Positions 52,402 to 61,340 of a stretch of DNA of 64,000 nucleotides are shown piece after piece (the first letter of the stretch is position 1; each line of letters begins with the position of its first letter). Origin of the DNA: an uncultured Alistipes sp. (GTDB lineage Bacteria > Bacteroidota > Bacteroidia > Bacteroidales > Rikenellaceae); assembly GCA_947364365.1 (NCBI GenBank), contig CANASP010000004.1:1-64000 (forward strand), read 5' to 3'. Under the pieces are notes generated by a model. That model saw nothing but the letters and a program-made list of their open reading frames with translations. It searched no databases and was not told where the DNA came from. The translations under genes and the position numbers were made by a program.

Positions 52402-53706
52402 ATGAAACTGCGCTCCCGTTATTCGGGGATCGTCCCGAATCTGCTGGTCGCCGTGGCGATCTCGCTGGTGGTCAACTTCTCCTACCTGCTGCTGCTGCTC
52501 GTCGAACGCAACGACACGCCGCCCAAACCCGACGAAACGCTCATCGTGAGCCGCCCCGAGGAGGGCACGCTGTCGGTGAACCCCGACGGCCACGCCTACC
52601 TGGTCTATCCCGACGGCGACAGCGTCTACGTCACCCAGTCGCGCGTGCGCCGCTTCTCGCTCGCCGACGGCGACCGGCTCGTCGGCGATCTGGAGCCGCC
52701 CCGCTCGCAGTCGGGACACCCCCAGCTGGCGCGCATCGCACGGCGCAACGGCTGCGAGTTCGATTACAGCACCCTCTACAACCGCCCGTCGGAGGGCTAT
52801 CAGCTGATGTTGCAGCTGCTCTACTACCTCGTCGTATCGTTCATCCTGCTGCTGATCCTCTCGCGTTCGCGCCGCAACTACTCGGCCCGCGGCTTCGCGC
52901 TGCTGTGTCTGTGGTGCGTGCCCATCGCCGCGGCGCTCTACCTCGTGGCGCCCGTCACCGAATGGCACACGGGGCGGATCCGCCTCAACTTCATGGGCGG
53001 GCGGCTCTTCGACTACGTGCTGCTGCTCAAGTACTCGTTCGTCGTCGTGGTGTCGGTGCTCTACGGCCGCATCTACGTCCTCGTGTCGCAGCAGCGGGCC
53101 GTGGAGCTCGAAAACGAACAGCTCAAGAACGAGAACCTCACCACGCGCTACAACATGCTCGTGGGACAGATCAACCCCCACTTCTTCTTCAACTCGCTCA
53201 ACTCGCTGGCGATGCTCGTGCGCGAGGGCGAGCAGCAACGGGCTCTCACCTACATCGACCGCCTCTCCTACACGTTCCGCTACATTCTCCAGAACGGGCA
53301 GAACATGCTGGTGAGCGTGGAGGAGGAGCTGCGCTTCCTGGAGGCCTATGCCTACCAGTTCAAGGTGCGTTACGAGGAGAAGCTCTTCTTCGACATCGCC
53401 GTCGAACCCCGCTACCGTTCGTGGAGGCTGCCGGCGCTGACGCTCCAGCCCCTGATCGACAACGCCGTGAAACACAACGCGCTCACCTCGGCCCACCCGC
53501 TGCGGATCGCCATCCGCACCGAGGGCGATCGGCTCGTGGTGTCGAACCCCCTCTCGCCCAAGCTCGAAAAGGTCGCCTCGACGGGCATCGGGCTCGAAAA
53601 CCTGCGCAACCGCTGGCACCTGATCGCCGACTGCCCGATCGAGGTGGTCGACGACGGCGAACGCTTCACCGTGCGCCTGCCGCTCCAACCCCCCGCCGAC
53701 AAATGA
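52402..53706 (+). CDS. LytS/YehU-type sensor histidine kinase
   Basis: 434 residues. Membrane helices at about 10-34, 138-155, 165-185 and 203-226; the loop at about 35-135 is the probable periplasmic sensor. The kinase is His_kinase type: His260 in QINPHFFFNSLNSL, then LQPLIDNAVKHN (N box) and STGIGLENLRNR (G box). Overlaps the regulator gene by ATGA, forming a two-component system. Confidence 0.93.
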   Translation: MKLRSRYSGIVPNLLVAVAISLVVNFSYLLLLLVERNDTPPKPDETLIVSRPEEGTLSVNPDGHAYLVYPDGDSVYVTQSRVRRFSLADGDRLVGDLEPPRSQSGHPQLARIARRNGCEFDYSTLYNRPSEGYQLMLQLLYYLVVSFILLLILSRSRRNYSARGFALLCLWCVPIAAALYLVAPVTEWHTGRIRLNFMGGRLFDYVLLLKYSFVVVVSVLYGRIYVLVSQQRAVELENEQLKNENLTTRYNMLVGQINPHFFFNSLNSLAMLVREGEQQRALTYIDRLSYTFRYILQNGQNMLVSVEEELRFLEAYAYQFKVRYEEKLFFDIAVEPRYRSWRLPALTLQPLIDNAVKHNALTSAHPLRIAIRTEGDRLVVSNPLSPKLEKVASTGIGLENLRNRWHLIADCPIEVVDDGERFTVRLPLQPPADK

Positions 53707-54464
53707 AAGCCCTGATTATCGAAGACGAAACGGCCGCCGCACGCAACCTGAAGGCCATCCTGCGCGAGGTGGCGCCCGAGATGGAGATCGCGGCCACGCT
53801 CGAAAGCGTCGTCGAGAGCGTCGACTACCTGCGCTCGAACCCGCGACCCGACCTGCTCTTCATGGACATCCACCTGGCCGACGGCGATTCGTTCCGCATC
53901 TTCGACGCCGTGGAGGTCTCGTCGCCCGTGATCTTCACCACGGCCTACGACCAGTATGCGCTCGAAGCCTTCCGCGTCGACAGCATCGACTACCTGCTCA
54001 AGCCCGTCAACGCCGCCGACGTGGAGCGCGCCCTGGGCAAATTGCAGCGGCTGACCGGACTCCAGCGGGCCGAATACGGCTCGCGCGTGCGGCGCATGGC
54101 CGCGGCGCAGCGCGCGGAAGGCGCCTTCCTGGTCCATGTGCGCGACCGCATCATCCCGCTACCCACCGACCGCATCGCCTTCTGCTATACGGCCGACGAA
54201 CGGGTATGGGCCCACGACTACGACGGCACGGCCTACCCGCTGGACAAGACGCTCGAAGCGTTGCAGGCCGCACTGCCCGAGGCGGAGTTCTTCCGCGCCA
54301 ACCGCCAGTTCATCGTCGCGCGCCGCGCCGTGCGCGACATCGCCGTGTGGTTCGGCAGCCGGCTGTCGCTGTCGCTGACCGTCGAGACCCCCGAGCGGAT
54401 CGTGGTTCCCAAGGCCCGCGTCCCCGAATTCAAGGCCTGGCTCACGGCGGTTCGCCCCCTCTGA
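53703..54464 (+). CDS. LytTR-family response regulator
   Basis: 253 residues. Receiver domain 1-120 with phospho-acceptor Asp55 (LLFMDIHL), acidic pair in IEDE and Lys in YLLKPVN; LytTR DNA-binding domain about 150-250 (FFRANRQFIVARRAVRDI). Coupled to the kinase. LytTR proteins bind direct repeats on one helix face; such repeats with 21-bp spacing lie immediately downstream. Confidence 0.95.
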   Translation: MKALIIEDETAAARNLKAILREVAPEMEIAATLESVVESVDYLRSNPRPDLLFMDIHLADGDSFRIFDAVEVSSPVIFTTAYDQYALEAFRVDSIDYLLKPVNAADVERALGKLQRLTGLQRAEYGSRVRRMAAAQRAEGAFLVHVRDRIIPLPTDRIAFCYTADERVWAHDYDGTAYPLDKTLEALQAALPEAEFFRANRQFIVARRAVRDIAVWFGSRLSLSLTVETPERIVVPKARVPEFKAWLTAVRPL

Positions 54465-54498
54465 AGGGCGATTCACCCCGCCATTGGGTCGTTCGACC
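54448..54498 (+). promoter_or_regulatory. probable LytTR operator, three repeats at 21-bp spacing
   Basis: CGGTTCGCC (54448-54456), CGATTCACC (54469-54477) and CGTTCGACC (54490-54498) start exactly 21 bp apart and sit 84, 63 and 42 bp before the -7 box. The first lies inside the regulator's own 3' end. Confidence 0.65.
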
Positions 54499-54531
54499 CG
54501 GAGTGCGGCTCCGGGCCGGAGGTTTCGTGAC

Positions 54532-54539
54532 TATCTTTG
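54532..54539 (+). promoter_or_regulatory. -7 box of the Spy-like gene
   Basis: TATCTTTG, 58 nt before the start codon and 42 bp after the start of the third operator repeat. Confidence 0.75.
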
Positions 54540-54596
54540 CTACGGGAGCCCCGCGCGATGCGGGTCCCGAGCAGAAACCTTTAAAACACAGATGTC

Positions 54597-55025
54597 ATGA
54601 AACTGAAAATCACGATGGCCGCAGCGCTCGTCTGCCTGCTGGCTACGGCGGCGCTCTTCGCCCAGACCCCCGAACGTTCGAACCGCAAGCAGCCCACGGC
54701 CGAGCAGATGGCCCGCCGGCAGAGCGACCGCATGCAGAAATCGCTGAAACTCGACGCGCAGCAGACCGAGCGGGTCTACAAGCTCCGTCTCGACCAGATC
54801 AAGCGCGAGGAGGCCCGGCGCGAAGCGCTGCGCAAGGAGCGCAAGGCCGACGAAGAGGCGCTGCGCAAGATCCTCACCGAGGAGCAGTATCTCCAGTGGC
54901 AGAAACAGCAGAAGCAACAGCAGCGCCCCGGCGGCCCGGGCAACGGCATGGGCCCCCGCGGCAACGGCATGGGGCCCCGCGGCGGATTCCCGGGCACGGG
55001 CGAAGAGTCCGGGTTCGGAGCATAA
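54597..55025 (+). CDS. small exported Spy/LTXXQ-like protein with Gly/Pro tail
   Basis: 142 residues. Signal peptide MKLKITMAAALVCLLATAALFA. A helical Arg/Glu/Gln-rich body (LKLDAQQTERVYKLRLDQIK, LRKILTEEQYLQWQKQQ) resembles the helices of Spy/CpxP-type periplasmic chaperones and DUF4890 proteins. The tail (GGPGNGMGPRGNGMGPRGG) resembles the C-terminus of the next gene product. Own promoter with LytTR-like repeats, hence a probable target of the adjacent system. Confidence 0.75.
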   Translation: MKLKITMAAALVCLLATAALFAQTPERSNRKQPTAEQMARRQSDRMQKSLKLDAQQTERVYKLRLDQIKREEARREALRKERKADEEALRKILTEEQYLQWQKQQKQQQRPGGPGNGMGPRGNGMGPRGGFPGTGEESGFGA

Positions 55026-55048
55026 TGCCGCCCGGCACACGATCCGGT

Positions 55049-55099
55049 CGACTGACACCCCTTTTTGGGCGATTCACCGCCCGAGGGGCGGAGGTCGCC
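55049..55099 (+). promoter_or_regulatory. probable second LytTR operator
   Basis: Contains CGATTCACC at 55070-55078, within a 12-bp sequence (GGGCGATTCACC) identical to 54466-54477, 41 bp before the -7 box. Weaker repeats sit 21 bp to either side (55049-55057 and GAGGTCGCC at 55091-55099). Confidence 0.6.
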
Positions 55100-55110
55100 G
55101 GGAAAATGGT

Positions 55111-55118
55111 TATCTTCG
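55111..55118 (+). promoter_or_regulatory. -7 box of the beta-barrel receptor gene
   Basis: TATCTTCG, 31 nt before the start codon. Confidence 0.65.
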
Positions 55119-55149: not shown

Positions 55150-58110
55150 ATGAGAAAAGCAGTGCTAACGCTCCTGGTCGCACTCTTCGCGACCTCGGTC
55201 CTCGCCCAGCAGCGGGGAACCCTGACGGCCAAGATCGTCGACGCGGCAACGGGAGAGGGTATCCCCGGCGCCGTGCTGACGATCACCCCCGCCGCAACGC
55301 CCGACAAACCCAAACAGCTCACCTCGGGATACGAGGGCGCGGTCTCCGTGCCGTCGCTCGCCTACGGCGACTACACGCTGGAGGTCAGCTTCCTGGGATA
55401 TGACAACCACAAGTCGGAGTTCAAGATCGACGCGGCGAAGGTCGACGTGGGTCGCGTGGAGATGCGCGAGGGTATCCGCATCGAGACCGTCGTCAAGGAG
55501 GCCAAGCAGATGCGCACCTCGCAGAAGGGCGACACGGTGAGCTACAACGCCGGAGCCTTCAAGGTGACCAACGACGCCGACGTCGAGGGCCTGCTCAAGA
55601 AAATGCCGGGCATCACCATCACCAACGGCGCCGTAGAGGCCCAGGGCGAGGAGGTGAAGAAGATCTTCGTCGACGGCAAGGAGTTCTTCGGCGAGGACGT
55701 CACCACGGCGATCAAGTCGCTGCCGGCGCAGGCCGTCGACCGCATCGAGGTCTACAACAAGCTCTCCGACGCGGCCGAGTTCTCGGGCATGGACGACGGC
55801 GAGGGCTACAAGGCCATCAACATCGTCACCCACGCCAACATGCGCCAGGGACAGTTCGGCAAGCTCTACGCCGGCTACGGCTACGACGCCGACACGAAGA
55901 CCGAGACGCGTCACAAGTACCTCGCTGGCGGCAACGTCAACATCTTCAACGGCGACACGCGCGTATCGCTGCTCGGGCTGTTCAACAACGTCAACCAGCA
56001 GAACTTCTCGTTCGAGGACATTCTGGGCGTCACCGGGTCGAGCGGCCCGCAGCGGGGCGGCGTGGGCCAGTACATGATGCGTCCGCAGAGCGGCGTGGCC
56101 CGCGTCAACGCCTTCGGTATCAACTTCTCCGACGTATGGGGCAAGCGCGACCAGGTCAACGTGCAGGGCAGCTACTTCTTCAACAACACCCGCACGAAGA
56201 ACACGCAGACGACCGACAAGTGGTACGAGCCGCCCATGCTCATCGACACCCTTTCGACGCTCGGCTATTCCGACACGCCGGCCTACAACCACCGCGCCAA
56301 CGCCCGCATCGAGTGGAAGATCTCGGAAAACCAGAACCTGATGCTCCGCCCGTCGTTCAGCTATCAGACCAACGACCCGTGGAGCACGACCCAGGGCTGG
56401 CAGTTCGGCCAAAGCGGATACAGCCGCACCGACAACTTCAGCCAGTCGACGCGCAACGGCTACAACCTGCGTCTGTCGGCCGTCTACCGCGCCAAGCTGG
56501 GCAAGGACGGCCGCACGCTGACCATCGACGCCAACGGCGCCTACCGCGACAATTCGAGCACGGCCGACTCGTGGTCGAACCAAATGGGATTGCAGTCCAC
56601 ACGGCCGGGCGCAGGCTCGCTCATCGACGCATGGGACCCCACCGACTACACCCAGCTGCGCTACCTGCGCTCGCTCACTCCGTCGAAAAGCCATTCGGTG
56701 GGCGCCAACGCCACCTACACCGAGCCGCTGGCCAAGTACCTCCAGTTCAGCGTCCAGTACCGCTTCTCGCTCTCGCACTCGGAGCGCGACAAACGGTCGT
56801 ACATCACCGCCGACGACCGCTTCGACATCACGGGCCTCGAACCCGACCTGTCGCTGTCGAACGCCTACGAGAGCAACTACAAGACCCACACCGTGGGCCC
56901 GGGTATCCGCTTCGCCAAGGAGCGCAACACCTTCATCGCCAACGTCTACTACCAGCGTGCGACGCTCGACGGCAAGGTCGTGCGCGGCAACACCGAGGAG
57001 ATCCGCCACGACTACGACCGCGTGACCTACTTCATGATGGGCCAGCTGCAGATCAACCGCGAGAACTCGCTGCGTCTGTTCGTCACGTCCAACACCAACT
57101 CGCCGAGCATCACCAACCTGCAAAGCGTCTACGACGTGTCGAACGCCCAGAACATCACGCGCGGTAACCCCAATCTGAACCCCTATTACAACCACAACAT
57201 CAACTTCCACTACATCAATTCGAACGTGGAGAAGGGCCGCACCTTCATGTGGATGTTCTCGACGCAGTTCACGCAGGACTACAACGGCACGCACACGGTG
57301 CAGAACCCCGGCACGATGACGATCGACGAGCAGGAGTACCGCCCCAACTACTACTCGATGCCGGTGAACCTCGACGGCTACAAGAGCCTGCGCACCCACC
57401 TGAGCTACGGATTCCCGATCGGGTTCCTCAAGAGCAACTTCAACGTCATGGCCGGCGTCTCCTACACCCAGACCCCGAGCATGCTGGGCGGCACGGTGCT
57501 GAGCGACGGCACGATCGAGGGCGGCATGCGCAACGACACCAAGACGATGGGTTACGACGGCCGCGCGGTGTTGGGCAGCAACATCTCGGAGAATGTCGAC
57601 TTCACCCTCTCGTGGAACGGGACCTACAACGAGTCGACCAACTCCTACGACGGCAACCGCACCAAGAACCGTTACTTCAACCACACGGCCGAGGCCAGCA
57701 TGAAGTTCGTGCTCCCGCTGGGCTTCACCCTCACGGCGAGCGCCGCCTACAACCAGTATATCGGCTTCACGAACAACTACGACGAGTCGTACCTGCTCTG
57801 CAACGTCTACGTGGGCAAGAAGATCTTCAAGAACCAGCGGGGCGAGATCCTCGTGGGGGTCAACGACCTGCTGAACCAGAACACGGCCTTCGCCCGTTCG
57901 GTGGGCTCGGGCTGGACGCAGAACGTCACCAACAGCGTCATCGGCCGCTACTACATGGTGCAGTTCACCTACAACCTGCGCCGCTTCGGCAAGAAGGGCT
58001 CGACCAATCTGAAGGACTACGGGATCTCGGACAAGTCGTCGGGCAACCGCCGCATGGGCCCCGGCGGCCCGGGCGGTCCCCCTCCGGGTGGCTTCGGAGG
58101 ACCGCGGTAA
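55150..58110 (+). CDS. TonB-dependent-receptor-like outer-membrane beta-barrel protein
   Basis: 986 residues. Signal peptide ending VLAQQ, a carboxypeptidase-regulatory-like domain (about 23-105, TGEGIPGAVLTITP), a plug-like domain (about 110-230, VEGLLKKMPGITITNGAVEA) and a large barrel in the style of OMP_b-brl_3. The C-terminus does not end with an aromatic residue but with a Gly/Pro tail (MGPGGPGGPPPGGFGGPR) after the final strand. The ligand is unknown; no SusD-like partner is adjacent. Probable target of the LytTR system. Confidence 0.9.
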   Translation: MRKAVLTLLVALFATSVLAQQRGTLTAKIVDAATGEGIPGAVLTITPAATPDKPKQLTSGYEGAVSVPSLAYGDYTLEVSFLGYDNHKSEFKIDAAKVDVGRVEMREGIRIETVVKEAKQMRTSQKGDTVSYNAGAFKVTNDADVEGLLKKMPGITITNGAVEAQGEEVKKIFVDGKEFFGEDVTTAIKSLPAQAVDRIEVYNKLSDAAEFSGMDDGEGYKAINIVTHANMRQGQFGKLYAGYGYDADTKTETRHKYLAGGNVNIFNGDTRVSLLGLFNNVNQQNFSFEDILGVTGSSGPQRGGVGQYMMRPQSGVARVNAFGINFSDVWGKRDQVNVQGSYFFNNTRTKNTQTTDKWYEPPMLIDTLSTLGYSDTPAYNHRANARIEWKISENQNLMLRPSFSYQTNDPWSTTQGWQFGQSGYSRTDNFSQSTRNGYNLRLSAVYRAKLGKDGRTLTIDANGAYRDNSSTADSWSNQMGLQSTRPGAGSLIDAWDPTDYTQLRYLRSLTPSKSHSVGANATYTEPLAKYLQFSVQYRFSLSHSERDKRSYITADDRFDITGLEPDLSLSNAYESNYKTHTVGPGIRFAKERNTFIANVYYQRATLDGKVVRGNTEEIRHDYDRVTYFMMGQLQINRENSLRLFVTSNTNSPSITNLQSVYDVSNAQNITRGNPNLNPYYNHNINFHYINSNVEKGRTFMWMFSTQFTQDYNGTHTVQNPGTMTIDEQEYRPNYYSMPVNLDGYKSLRTHLSYGFPIGFLKSNFNVMAGVSYTQTPSMLGGTVLSDGTIEGGMRNDTKTMGYDGRAVLGSNISENVDFTLSWNGTYNESTNSYDGNRTKNRYFNHTAEASMKFVLPLGFTLTASAAYNQYIGFTNNYDESYLLCNVYVGKKIFKNQRGEILVGVNDLLNQNTAFARSVGSGWTQNVTNSVIGRYYMVQFTYNLRRFGKKGSTNLKDYGISDKSSGNRRMGPGGPGGPPPGGFGGPR

Positions 58111-58364: not shown

Positions 58365-61340
58365 TCAGAAGGGAAGCCCGAGCGCCACGGCGAACGACGT
58401 TCCGCCCGTCGAGGGACGGTAGAGCGAGAACTTGACGGTGGAGGTGGCCGAGGCGGGCTGGCGGAAGGCGTTGATGTCGAAGACCAGGTCGCCGCCCGCG
58501 GACCAGATGCGGCGGCACTCGGTGCGCGGTCCCGCCGGGCGGCGGAACTGGGCGTAGTCGCCGCCCAGGTTGAGGCGGATGCGCTTGAAGTAGAGCACCG
58601 AACCGATACCGCCCTCGGGGTACCATACGGGCAGCTGGTAGTCAATGCGCGCGGCGACGTAGTTGTTGGCGACGATCTCGGCCGAGGTGAAGCCGCGGGG
58701 AATCAGGCTCGACGATTTGTAGCTCAGCGGAGCGTAACCCGAGGGGAACTGATAGCCGCCCACCGAGGTCTGCCACGTCGAGGCGAGTTGCAGCGAGTGG
58801 TGGGCGGCGGCACCCGGGAGGATAAGCCGGACATAGGCCGACACGAGGTCGCTGAAACGGGCGTTGGAGGGGTTGAAGGTATAACCCGCCGAGAGGGTAT
58901 ACCCCCAGCGGGGCGCGAAGTCGCGGTGCGCCAGCAGCGTCTGGTCGGAGAACGAGGCGCCGAACGAGAGCTTGTGCAGGCCGTGGCGGAAACCCACGTG
59001 CTGGATGTTGGTGATCCCGCCGCCCTCCGACCACTCGATGCGGTCGACGTCGGCCACCATGCCGTTGGAGTAGTTCCACCCGGCCCGCAGAGTGAGCCAG
59101 CGCGTGCGGGCGCCGCGCGGGAAGCAGAGCGGCAGGGCGGCCGAGAGCCCCGTGGAGAAGTAGCGGTCGGGGGCCGGGCACGTCTGGTAGACGGGATTGC
59201 CCGTCTGGGGGTCGTAGGACGAGAGGGCGTAGAAGAGCTGGTTGCCGCCGTAGTCGAGATCGAAGTCGAACTCCACGCCCAGGCCGAAGTAGCGGACGCC
59301 GGTGCGCACCAGCGACCCCTCGGCGCGGTTCCAGCCGTAGGAGGCGAAGGCTTCGGTGTTGGAGAGAAGGTTCTGCGAGAGGATCGTCGCGCCGAGATTG
59401 ACCTCGATACGGTGTTCGTCGACCGCATCGAAGGGGTTGAACGCCACGGGCATCCAGCTGTGGATGTTGACCAGGTTGGGCAGCTTGCGGTAGCGGCGGG
59501 GACGCACGGCGGGCCGCTGCGCGCGGGCGGCCTCCTCGCTGTAACGGATCGTGTCGAGGTTGGGGACATTCCACCGGGCGAGGGGCGGATTCACCCGGTC
59601 GGCGGGCAGCCGCGCGGGAGCCACCTCCTCCGCCTCGCGCAGATCGGCCGCCGGGCGCACGGCCACGCGGTAGCCGCGGCGGTCGTAGAGCGTCACGAGC
59701 ACGCTGTCGCCCGCAGGAGCGGGTTCGAAGGCGCCGTAACGCGAGGCGGTGAGGCGGTATTCGCGCCCCGAGGCGAGGTCGTAGCAGTGGGCCTCGTCCT
59801 GGCCCGAGGCGATCGATCCGTAGTAGAGCCGCCCGCCCGCAGCGCGCAGGTGGCTCAGCGTGATGTAGGCACCCGAAGTTATCGGACGCAGCGCTCCCGC
59901 CTCCGCGCGGGCCAGGTGCATGCCGTCGTCGTCGGTGACCAGCGCGTAGAGCGCCCGCGTCGCATCGTCCCACGCCAGGCCGTGGATCTCGCGCCCGGGT
60001 TCGGCCGTGCCGCACACCTCCGCATCGCCTCCGGCACGTTCGCGGAGGATGCGGTAGCTGCCGTCGAGCGCATATTCGACCCAGGCCATGCCGTCGTCCG
60101 TCCAGGTGGGATAGAGGGCGTTGCGGGCTCCGAAGGCGCAGGGCCGGGGCCGGGCATCGTCCAGATCGAGCGCACAGAGCTGCGAATGGACCCGCTGCTC
60201 GAAGAGCGTCGAGCGGCGGTACTCGGTCCACACCAGCCGGCTGCCGGCGAGCGCCGGGCGCGACGAGAGGCTGCCCACGCCGGCGACGACGCGCTCCTCG
60301 CCCGTCATGCGGTCGAGGATCACGAACCGGGCCGGACGGTCGTAGTCGCTCTTCAGGACGACGATCCGGCGGTCGTCGAGCGGCAGCGGCCAGCGATAGG
60401 TCGTGTAGTTGTTGTCGGGCAGCCGGACGATCGTCCGCGCATCGTCCTCACAGAGGGGAAGGGCGTCCCAGAAGCCGCGGAGCGCGTCGAACGTCTCGTG
60501 GAAGAGCTTCGCGACGCTGGTGTCGTAGTATTTCGACAGGGCGAAGCGCGTGGTGACGATCAGGTAGGGATTGCGCGCCCCGAAGCGCACCACCTTGTCC
60601 CAGATGTTCTCGCCGTAGCGCCGCCACGCGTAGGAGCAGATCTGGTAGCCCAGCTCGTAGTGGTCGGGGACATGGCTGCGGTAGGAGCCGCAGAACCACT
60701 TGTCGATGTTCCGGCGGTCGCGGCCGCGGTCGTCGACGCCTGGGCGTCCCATCGCCCGGTAGGCCATCGAGAAGGAGGGTTGCAGTCCGCGGCCGTAGGA
60801 GGACATCATCGTCTCCGACATCACCGCATCGCCCTCCATCGCCCAGAGGGGCATGCCGAGCAGACCGACGGTCGACCCCTGCTGGCCCAGCACGTAGCTC
60901 AATACGCGGATCAGCCCTCTGTCGAGGTTGTTGTACTGCACGGCGTGGCGGTATTCGTGGGCCACCAGCTGCTTGTACCACGGCATCGAGTAGCCCTCGA
61001 CGGCCGGAGCCGTGAGAAACTCGACGCGCTTGGGAAGATACATCACCAAGCCGTTGGAGCGGAAATTGCCCGGGTGCATGACGAAGGGGATGCGCATGGG
61101 GCCGTGGGTGAAACCGTAGCCGATCGCAGGTTGCACCGTGCGCACGAAGAAGAGCGTGCGCCGTGCCAGCGGCGCGACCGTATCGGGATAGATCATCCTC
61201 ACGTCGGGCGTGCGGACGGTCGTCCACTTCATCGGGGCGTCGGAGCCCCACGTGTAGTACTGCGCCGCAGCGCGGTGCGCACCGCAGAGCAGCACGAAGA
61301 GCCACAGCAGGCAGAGTCTATGTCGGACCGGGATTGCCAA
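58365..61340 (-). CDS. gluzincin metalloprotease fused to propeller and outer-membrane barrel
   Basis: 991 residues. Signal peptide (LCLLWLFVLLCGAHRAAAQ). Residues about 40-290 are a peptidase-MA-like domain with zinc motif HEYRH (128-132) and third ligand Glu169 in PLWAMEGDAV. About 300-640 is a WD40/TolB-like propeller. About 650-991 is beta-strand-rich with alternating aromatics and ends in Phe (VALGLPF), as outer-membrane barrels do. This suggests a periplasmic or surface protease tethered by its own barrel. Substrate unknown. 30 bp after the SUI1 gene. Confidence 0.85.
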   Translation of the reverse strand: MAIPVRHRLCLLWLFVLLCGAHRAAAQYYTWGSDAPMKWTTVRTPDVRMIYPDTVAPLARRTLFFVRTVQPAIGYGFTHGPMRIPFVMHPGNFRSNGLVMYLPKRVEFLTAPAVEGYSMPWYKQLVAHEYRHAVQYNNLDRGLIRVLSYVLGQQGSTVGLLGMPLWAMEGDAVMSETMMSSYGRGLQPSFSMAYRAMGRPGVDDRGRDRRNIDKWFCGSYRSHVPDHYELGYQICSYAWRRYGENIWDKVVRFGARNPYLIVTTRFALSKYYDTSVAKLFHETFDALRGFWDALPLCEDDARTIVRLPDNNYTTYRWPLPLDDRRIVVLKSDYDRPARFVILDRMTGEERVVAGVGSLSSRPALAGSRLVWTEYRRSTLFEQRVHSQLCALDLDDARPRPCAFGARNALYPTWTDDGMAWVEYALDGSYRILRERAGGDAEVCGTAEPGREIHGLAWDDATRALYALVTDDDGMHLARAEAGALRPITSGAYITLSHLRAAGGRLYYGSIASGQDEAHCYDLASGREYRLTASRYGAFEPAPAGDSVLVTLYDRRGYRVAVRPAADLREAEEVAPARLPADRVNPPLARWNVPNLDTIRYSEEAARAQRPAVRPRRYRKLPNLVNIHSWMPVAFNPFDAVDEHRIEVNLGATILSQNLLSNTEAFASYGWNRAEGSLVRTGVRYFGLGVEFDFDLDYGGNQLFYALSSYDPQTGNPVYQTCPAPDRYFSTGLSAALPLCFPRGARTRWLTLRAGWNYSNGMVADVDRIEWSEGGGITNIQHVGFRHGLHKLSFGASFSDQTLLAHRDFAPRWGYTLSAGYTFNPSNARFSDLVSAYVRLILPGAAAHHSLQLASTWQTSVGGYQFPSGYAPLSYKSSSLIPRGFTSAEIVANNYVAARIDYQLPVWYPEGGIGSVLYFKRIRLNLGGDYAQFRRPAGPRTECRRIWSAGGDLVFDINAFRQPASATSTVKFSLYRPSTGGTSFAVALGLPF

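What the first reader, a model, noticed from the sequence alone, without database searches (positions are those of the whole stretch)
54448..55118. 21-bp-phased direct repeats at two promoters next to a LytTR two-component system
Three 9-bp elements (CGGTTCGCC, CGATTCACC, CGTTCGACC) start exactly 21 bp apart, 84/63/42 bp before the -7 box of the Spy-like gene. An identical 12-bp sequence, GGGCGATTCACC, recurs before the beta-barrel receptor gene with CGATTCACC 41 bp before its -7 box and weaker repeats 21 bp on each side. LytTR regulators bind direct repeats on one DNA face, so a kinase/regulator/Spy-like/receptor module with defined operators is predicted. It looks like an envelope-stress or ligand-sensing circuit.
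Basis: partly seen in the sequence, partly recalled or inferred. Interest (0 to 1): 0.7.

Follow-up and report, generated by a model that had tools for sequence, protein, structure and literature searches.

The report
Envelope gene switch with phased operators
In Alistipes-type gut bacteria, 9-base DNA repeats set 21 bases apart stand before envelope-protein genes beside a two-component switch whose regulator is predicted to bind them, and the switch's sensor kinase carries a domain matching the RNA-binding part of the termination factor Rho, likely on the periplasmic side, so this may be an envelope-stress response with an unusual sensor.

Summary
In the window and 80 related loci, CGDTTSRCC pairs occur 84 times at 21 bp on the regulator-gene strand, 9 times at 22 bp, and at most 4 times at any other spacing from 10 to 41 bp. 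In 50 of 80 relatives the proximal element starts 40-43 bp before a TAnnTT(T/C) box. Element 1 lies in the regulator's coding end and is held at DNA level: 38 of 39 codons end in T, 6.4 expected. A sequence model built without the window finds, below E 0.01, only this locus in the window's genome; at E<=0.001 it finds 93 of 101 congeneric genomes and 3 of 118 others of the order. Off-locus sites lie before outer-membrane barrels, Spy-like proteins, RND efflux adaptors and PelZ-like proteins. Best reading: LytTR operators of an envelope-maintenance regulon; similar operators are in print for Bacteroides LytTR operons (PMC6193735). The kinase's predicted periplasmic domain is a Rho-type OB fold, absent in some relatives. 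Binding, sign of regulation and signal are untested.

The parts
52402..53706 (+). sensor histidine kinase (PF06580), 434 aa, four predicted membrane helices
   Evidence: PF06580 73 bits, cut-off 25.2; model helices 10-35 (with a break), 131-157, 162-181, 205-256
52546..52755 (+). Rho-type OB/cold-shock-like domain of the kinase (residues 49-118), predicted periplasmic between helix 1 and helix 2
53703..54464 (+). LytTR response regulator, 253 aa; ATGA overlap with the kinase gene
   Evidence: PF04397 56.8 bits (cut-off 22.6), PF00072 47.3 bits (cut-off 30.2)
54448..54456 (+). element 1 CGGTTCGCC, inside the 3' coding end of the regulator gene
   Evidence: codon constraint
54469..54477 (+). element 2 CGATTCACC
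54490..54498 (+). element 3 CGTTCGACC, proximal, 42 bp before the -7 box
54532..54539 (+). -7 box TATCTTTG of the Spy-like gene
   Evidence: consensus TAnnTTTG from a passage of PMC7366714
54597..55025 (+). Spy-like small secreted protein, 142 aa, with an LTEEQ stretch
   Evidence: DUF4890 25.4 bits, below its cut-off 29.7
55049..55057 (+). distal element of the barrel-gene promoter, CGACTGACA (2 mismatches); in most relatives examined it is part of a terminator-like hairpin behind the Spy-like gene
55070..55078 (+). proximal element of the barrel-gene promoter, CGATTCACC, 41 bp before the -7 box
   Evidence: promoter 40.5 bits with model R1
55111..55118 (+). -7 box TATCTTCG of the barrel gene
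55150..58110 (+). outer-membrane beta-barrel protein (OMP_b-brl_3) with CarboxypepD_reg-like domain, 986 aa
   Evidence: PF14905 70.7 bits (cut-off 27), PF13620 37.5 bits (cut-off 32.3)

Best explanation
The locus is a kinase and LytTR regulator pair followed by a Spy-like gene and an outer-membrane barrel gene, each preceded by 9-bp direct repeats 21 bp apart whose proximal copy starts 41-42 bp before a -7 box, and the phosphorylated regulator likely binds these repeats on one DNA face and would activate both genes. Shown by sequence comparison: the repeats, their phase, orientation and place are conserved, the first one even within the regulator's coding end; the same array stands before envelope genes elsewhere in the genus. 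Inferred: the regulator of this locus is the binder; binding just upstream of the -33 region activates transcription. The output is predicted to be envelope maintenance (periplasmic chaperone-like protein, outer-membrane barrels, in relatives also RND efflux pumps), like the E. coli Bae/Cpx responses in content but built on a LytTR regulator. The kinase is predicted to sense through a Rho-type OB domain placed in the periplasm; its ligand is unknown, and the best guess is an envelope-damage product or a partner protein such as the Spy-like protein.
For: Spacing: 84 pairs at 21 bp, 9 at 22, 22 at 42, 8 at 43, and 0-4 at every other spacing from 10 to 59 bp on the + strand of 81 sources; 1 at 21 bp on the other strand, itself before a Spy-like gene there (L093). 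-7 box 40-43 bp from the proximal element in 50 of 80 relatives. Element 1 in the coding end: third codon base T in 38 of 39 regulator genes with such a tail (of 81), 6.4 expected from each gene's own codon use; 27 of 28 after removing near-copies, 5.0 expected. A model made without the window scores the window's barrel promoter at 40.5 bits; in the own genome only this locus is below E 0.01. At E<=0.001: 93 of 101 genus genomes, 3 of 118 others of the order. Regulator present: 82 of 92 with an operator match at E<=1e-5; absent: 2 of 9; Fisher p 3e-5. Off-locus sites: of 43 promoters, 19 before relatives of the window's barrel protein, 5 before Spy-like, 5 before an RND-adaptor family, 6 before a PelZ-like family, although barrel-family matches number only 7-12 per genome in ten genomes. 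In a genome of another genus of the family the array stands before the kinase gene itself (L221). LytTR direct repeats just upstream of a TATCTTTG promoter are in print for B. thetaiotaomicron and B. ovatus (PMC6193735 passages).
Against: No binding or expression data. 30 of 80 relatives lack a pair with a -7 box at 40-43 bp: in some the pair sits one unit further up (62-64 bp), in others no array is present behind the regulator. 10 of 92 genomes with the regulator lack a strong operator match and 2 of 9 without it have one; in one of these two (G009) the Spy and barrel part ends at a contig end. Several LytTR proteins exist per genome, so another could be the binder. 14 regulator homologues of other families of the order show neither these neighbours nor, but for one distant array, the repeats. 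Two of the 40 off-locus regions (L159, L160) are themselves Spy- or small-gene-plus-barrel loci. The Rho-type motif is missing in 19 of 77 relatives' kinases, among them the kinase behind the array of L221/L098.
Confidence: 0.8

Rival explanations
1. The arrays are operators of a different LytTR protein, or of several paralogues that share one motif, and the adjacent pair is only one of the bound genes.
For: 4-8 LytTR domains per genome in 10 genomes, 4 in the window's genome; G008 has strong arrays without a close regulator orthologue.
Against: Arrays track this regulator's presence and its gene's 3' end, whose codons they constrain; in another genus of the family an array stands before the kinase gene.
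Confidence: 0.12
2. The regulator bound to the arrays represses rather than activates.
For: CoxC, a LytTR protein with three direct repeats, represses where its repeats overlap the -35 box (PMC11347149 passages).
Against: Here the proximal element ends about 32 bp before the -7 box, upstream of the -33 region, where by the same passages most LytTR activators bind; autoactivating LytTR repeats lie 4-11 bp upstream of the -35 box in S. mutans (PMC6193735 passages).
Confidence: 0.1
3. The repeats are not protein sites but parts of terminators or hairpins: GGGTCGTTCGACCC and GGCGGTTCGCC are small inverted repeats, and the distal barrel-gene element lies in a terminator in relatives.
For: In 34 of 46 relatives with a proximal element and -7 box before the barrel gene, the distal element coincides with the 3' arm of a stem (counted by eye).
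Against: The phase holds where no stem overlaps the element (L053 with a short one, L055, L064, L102); the window shows no such stem in the fold (-12.6 kcal/mol, other pairs) and keeps the element; a terminator would not need a -7 box at a fixed 41-42 bp, nor stand inside the regulator's coding end.
Confidence: 0.03
4. The 21-bp phasing is inherited sequence without function.
For: The loci are related, so pairs are not independent.
Against: Arrays recur before other genes at other loci; coding-end codons depart from usage in 27 of 28 divergent tails; spacer letters vary while spacer length does not in A1, whose rows were chosen for 21 bp, and 21 bp dominates in the unselected count.
Confidence: 0.01

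Closest known systems
LytTR regulatory systems (LRS) and the LRS-like operons of Bacteroides
   Same: LytTR direct repeats just upstream of the promoter; in B. thetaiotaomicron and B. ovatus 11-bp repeats with 11-bp spacer (22-bp period) before a TATCTTTG promoter, proximal repeat ending 34 bp before it by the printed spacings (PMC6193735 passages and table), against 32 bp here.
   Different: Membrane-bound LytTR regulators with NfeD-like membrane proteins, no kinase; different repeat sequence (TCCGGTATTCA); autoregulation of the operon; predicted there from sequence.
E. coli YpdA/YpdB (LytTR) and its yhjX promoter
   Same: Direct repeat GGCATTTCAT as A and B sites (PMC4847170 passages), close to the GGnCGTTTCACC seen here; LytS/LytTR-type pair.
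   Different: Responds to extracellular pyruvate (same passages); two sites, not three; target a transporter gene and a kinase without an OB domain (recalled).
RcoM1 and CoxC (LytTR with triplet direct repeats)
   Same: Three evenly spaced direct repeats, 12-13 bp spacers (PMC11347149 passages).
   Different: CoxC is a membrane one-component CO sensor and a repressor; 8-bp TTCNNGCA repeats.
E. coli BaeSR / CpxAR envelope stress responses
   Same: Targets include spy and RND efflux genes (BaeR: spy, mdtABCD; PMC7657598 passages), as in the genus-wide list here.
   Different: OmpR-type regulators, other sensor domains, no OMP_b-brl_3 targets (recalled).
Transcription termination factor Rho, RNA-binding OB domain
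   Same: Kinase residues 49-118 share fold and motifs (DGyGYl for DGFGFL, DSvYv for DDIYV).
   Different: Here within a membrane kinase, predicted periplasmic, no ATPase domain.

Membership tests
LytTR response regulators | receiver domain plus LytTR DNA-binding domain | tested here: met
   PF00072 47.3 bits (cut-off 30.2), PF04397 56.8 bits (cut-off 22.6)
LytTR operators | two or three direct repeats of about 9 bp with 10-13 bp spacers, near the promoter | tested here: met
   12-bp spacers; definition from passages of PMC4847170, PMC11347149, PMC6193735
LytTR operators | bound by the regulator | not testable with these tools
   only indirect: co-occurrence, codon constraint
LytTR regulatory systems (LRS) | LytTR regulator with an inhibitory membrane protein instead of a kinase | tested here: not met
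   the partner here is a PF06580 kinase and the regulator has a receiver domain
PF06580 histidine kinases | His_kinase domain | tested here: met
   and 28 of 28 kinases scanned, window included
Rho RNA-binding (OB/cold-shock) domain | sequence and fold of PF07497 | tested here: met
   above cut-off; 18 of 28 kinases, window included. Relatives: motif DGxGY-like in 58 of 77 kinases, absent in 19, one of them cut by a contig end
Rho RNA-binding (OB/cold-shock) domain | base-stacking aromatics (F64 and Y80 of E. coli Rho, recalled) | tested here: met
   equivalent Y23 invariant and Y33 in at least 90% of 25 rows chosen for having the domain
Rho RNA-binding (OB/cold-shock) domain | binds single-stranded nucleic acid | not testable with these tools
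   none
Spy/CpxP (LTXXQ) periplasmic chaperones | family profile match | tested here: inconclusive
   no LTXXQ hit at E<=0.001; DUF4890 25.4 bits below cut-off 29.7; LTEEQ read by eye
OMP_b-brl_3 outer-membrane proteins | PF14905 match | tested here: met
   70.7 bits, cut-off 27
TonB-dependent receptors | plug domain PF07715 | tested here: inconclusive
   no PF07715 hit for the window protein; weak, below cut-off, in a homologue (L171)
BaeSR/CpxAR stress systems | OmpR-type regulator | tested here: not met
   regulator is LytTR; resemblance is of target content only

The most novel reading that the evidence does not exclude
A two-component system of gut Bacteroidales reads periplasmic single-stranded nucleic acid, or a similar oligomer released by damage, through a Rho-type OB domain moved from termination into a membrane kinase, and drives an envelope-defence regulon (chaperone, barrels, efflux) through 21-bp-phased LytTR arrays, one of which has shaped the regulator's own C-terminal amino acids and one of which doubles as a transcription terminator.
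Probability: 0.1. Interest if true: 0.85.

Novelty: new variant of a known kind. Interest (0 to 1): 0.62.

Why it matters
It gives a base-level operator code and a predicted regulon for a LytTR two-component system across a large genus of gut bacteria; the searches run here (titles and abstract starts, plus passages of two of the listed papers) showed none for Alistipes. Targets become predictable from sequence alone, and Spy-like proteins, OMP_b-brl_3 barrels and RND pumps are linked to one circuit. The Rho-type domain in the kinase asks a clear, testable question: what does an RNA-binding fold sense in the periplasm?

Tried and rejected
Single-element enrichment: CGRTTCRCC with one mismatch is not enriched in the window, so single sites carry no weight. 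The downstream 'weak repeat' at 55091 was rejected (no conserved column there). The reverse-strand reading was rejected (29 sites on that strand, none paired at 21 bp). Extension beyond the family: of 16 loci fetched, 14 are regulator homologues of other families of the order (L208-L220, L223); none has the window's Spy or barrel neighbours by tblastn, and only L219 (G259) has an array with a -7 box, 6 kb upstream, before a gene named RND-pump-like by eye. The full-length kinase fold search showed 50 rows without Rho, so the OB domain was modelled alone. The first codon script used a regex that skipped most tails (17 rows); corrected (39 rows). Information content of A1 is inflated because rows were chosen by element and -7 box; only unselected columns (the G two bases before element 1, the T run before element 2) are independent support. 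Kinase alignment A2 holds 28 kinases (the window's and 27 of the 77) picked by me; it left out the short kinases, so one search counts all 77. The profile search with Rho_RNA_bind finds only the kinase in the window's genome, 87% complete, so descent from the resident Rho was not tested. Literature: 10 searches; no title or abstract start listed there is about an Alistipes LytTR operator or a Rho-domain kinase; no paper was read whole; passages were seen of PMC4847170, PMC11347149, PMC7657598, PMC7366714, PMC6193735 and PMC11850416. The probability of the novel case was lowered from 0.12 to 0.10 because the recount shows the Rho-type motif missing in 19 of 77 kinases; other odds stand.

Full report
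WHAT IS THERE. The window carries, on the + strand, a sensor kinase (52402-53706), a LytTR response regulator overlapping it by ATGA (53703-54464), a small Spy-like secreted protein (54597-55025) and a 986-aa outer-membrane barrel protein (55150-58110). TAnnTTTG is the -7 consensus deduced for the Bacteroidetes primary sigma factor (PMC7366714, passage seen). The genus is inferred to be Alistipes: the closest named loci are Alistipes, and one of them (L040) has the same match coordinates as a genome marked 'same genus' (G110).

IS IT MORE THAN CHANCE? Single 9-mers are not enriched. The phased pair is. The regulator was used to fetch 80 named related loci (the best 80 of 561; regulator identity 55-77%). 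In 129 regions (81 behind the regulator gene, 48 before the barrel gene) there were 92 element pairs at 21 bp with at most one mismatch each, 11 at 22 bp, and a mean of 0.04 pairs at 21 bp (largest 1) in 50 mononucleotide shuffles; on the other strand 29 elements and no pair at 21 bp. Over the 81 full sources, pairs with at most one mismatch in all numbered 84 at 21 bp, 9 at 22, 22 at 42, 8 at 43, and 0 to 4 at every other spacing between 10 and 59 bp on the + strand; 1 at 21 bp on the - strand, which itself precedes a Spy-like gene (L093). 50 of 80 relatives have a pair whose proximal element starts 40-43 bp before TAnnTT(T/C); 30 do not. In several of those 30 the pair sits at 62-64 bp, one unit further up; in others no array is present behind the regulator (seen).

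SELECTION AT DNA LEVEL. Element 1 lies within the last codons of the regulator. In 39 of 81 regulator genes (window included) the protein ends in W[LM]xx[VILF][HRQ], and there the element supplies the [VILF] codon: V, I, L and F all occur, but the third base is T in 38 of 39, against 6.4 expected from each gene's own codon usage; after dropping near-identical tails, 27 of 28 against 5.0. So the DNA element rather than the residue is conserved, and the operator appears to have written the regulator's C-terminus.

WHERE ELSE. A sequence-only model R1 of 77 positions was built from 44 promoters of relatives, without the window (rows chosen by element and -7 box). It scores the window's barrel promoter at 40.5 bits and the Spy promoter as two parts of 20.5 and 17.6 bits. 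In the window's genome (2.15 Mb) these three are the only matches below E 0.01 of 17 listed up to E 10. In the genus 98 of 101 genomes (own included) match at E<=0.01 and 93 at E<=0.001; in the order 3 of 118 other genomes match at E<=0.001: one of the same family, one strong in another family, one partial. Among the 101, regulator orthologue present (E<=1e-80): 82 of 92 have a match at E<=1e-5; absent: 2 of 9; Fisher p 3e-5 (E-values copied by hand, cut-offs set after seeing them; the genomes are related and many incomplete, so p is only a guide).

TARGETS. From the off-locus rows I fetched 40 regions. A simple rule (up to three mismatches over two elements, -7 box at 40-43 bp) finds arrays in 39 of them, 44 rows or 43 distinct promoters. 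The longest frame starting within 500 bp behind the -7 box is a relative of the window's barrel protein at 19 promoters (blastp, 24-66% identity; L192 is a short frame), Spy-like at 5, one of a 373-aa family at 5, of a 557-577 aa family at 6, of a 136-aa secreted family at 2, and a singleton at 6. Profile scans were made of ten plus nine of these or neighbouring proteins, not all: the 373-aa family is an RND adaptor (TIGR01730) with AcrB next in L161; the 557-577 aa family is weakly PelZ-like, far below NCBIfam's cut-off; of two distant barrels scanned, L171 has PF14905 and L182 only the CarboxypepD_reg domains; singletons include a TonB-dependent receptor and a BACON-domain protein. L159 and L160 are whole small-gene/Spy plus barrel loci. 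Barrel-family matches number only 7-12 per genome in ten genomes, so 19 of 43 is a strong enrichment, though total genes were not counted.

THE BARREL-GENE PROMOTER. Among 46 relatives with a proximal element and -7 box there, the distal element coincides in 34 with the 3' arm of a stem that in most of them is followed by a T run (stems counted by eye; T runs read); in others, such as L055, L064 and L102, a canonical element stands there with no stem overlapping it (L053 has a short one). The window keeps CGACTGACACCCC and the T run but its fold shows no such stem. This suggests, without proving, that one stretch serves as terminator and weak operator half. Against: in L073 and L076 the stem is kept while the element has decayed to 3-4 mismatches.

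MECHANISM. Most likely: an envelope signal acts on the OB domain, the kinase phosphorylates the regulator, and regulator molecules bind two or three elements on one face, two helical turns apart, just upstream of the -33 region, recruiting RNA polymerase to the Spy-like and barrel genes. LytTR sites of this form are described (PMC4847170, PMC11347149 and PMC6193735, passages seen); YpdB's GGCATTTCAT is close to the GGnCGTTTCACC here. The Bacteroides LRS-like operons of PMC6193735 have 11-bp repeats, 11-bp spacer, ending 34 bp before TATCTTTG by the printed spacings, nearly the geometry seen here (32 bp), with another repeat sequence and no kinase. The target list recalls BaeR's spy and mdtABCD (PMC7657598, passages). 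Binding, sign of regulation and signal are inferred.

VERDICT. The operator type is known, also in Bacteroides; the combination of a two-component LytTR pair, a Rho-type sensor domain and a barrel/Spy/efflux regulon is a new variant. The literature library searched holds open-licence papers only, so prior description elsewhere is not excluded.

Noticed in passing
52546-52755: Rho-type OB domain in the sensor kinase, predicted periplasmic; motif present in 58 of 77 relatives' kinases.
   Followed up: yes
54448-54464: The regulator's last codons are constrained by the operator; amino acids vary (V/I/L/F) while the third base stays T.
   Followed up: yes
55046-55066: Remnant of a terminator behind the Spy-like gene: 3' arm and T run kept, no matching 5' arm in the fold, element phase kept.
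   Followed up: partly
L175:1599-3281, L181:1537-3264: A 557-577 aa secreted family, weakly PelZ-like, behind arrays at six promoters; function unclear.
   Followed up: partly
L165:1685-2092: A 136-aa secreted protein without Pfam match behind near-identical arrays in two genomes (L165, L187).
   Followed up: no
L221 (same contig as L098:3733): In another genus of the family an array lies before the kinase gene, suggesting autoregulation of a kinase-regulator-barrel operon; that kinase lacks the Rho-type motif.
   Followed up: partly
58365-61340: 991-aa protein on the - strand behind the barrel gene with no Pfam match at E<=0.001.
   Followed up: no
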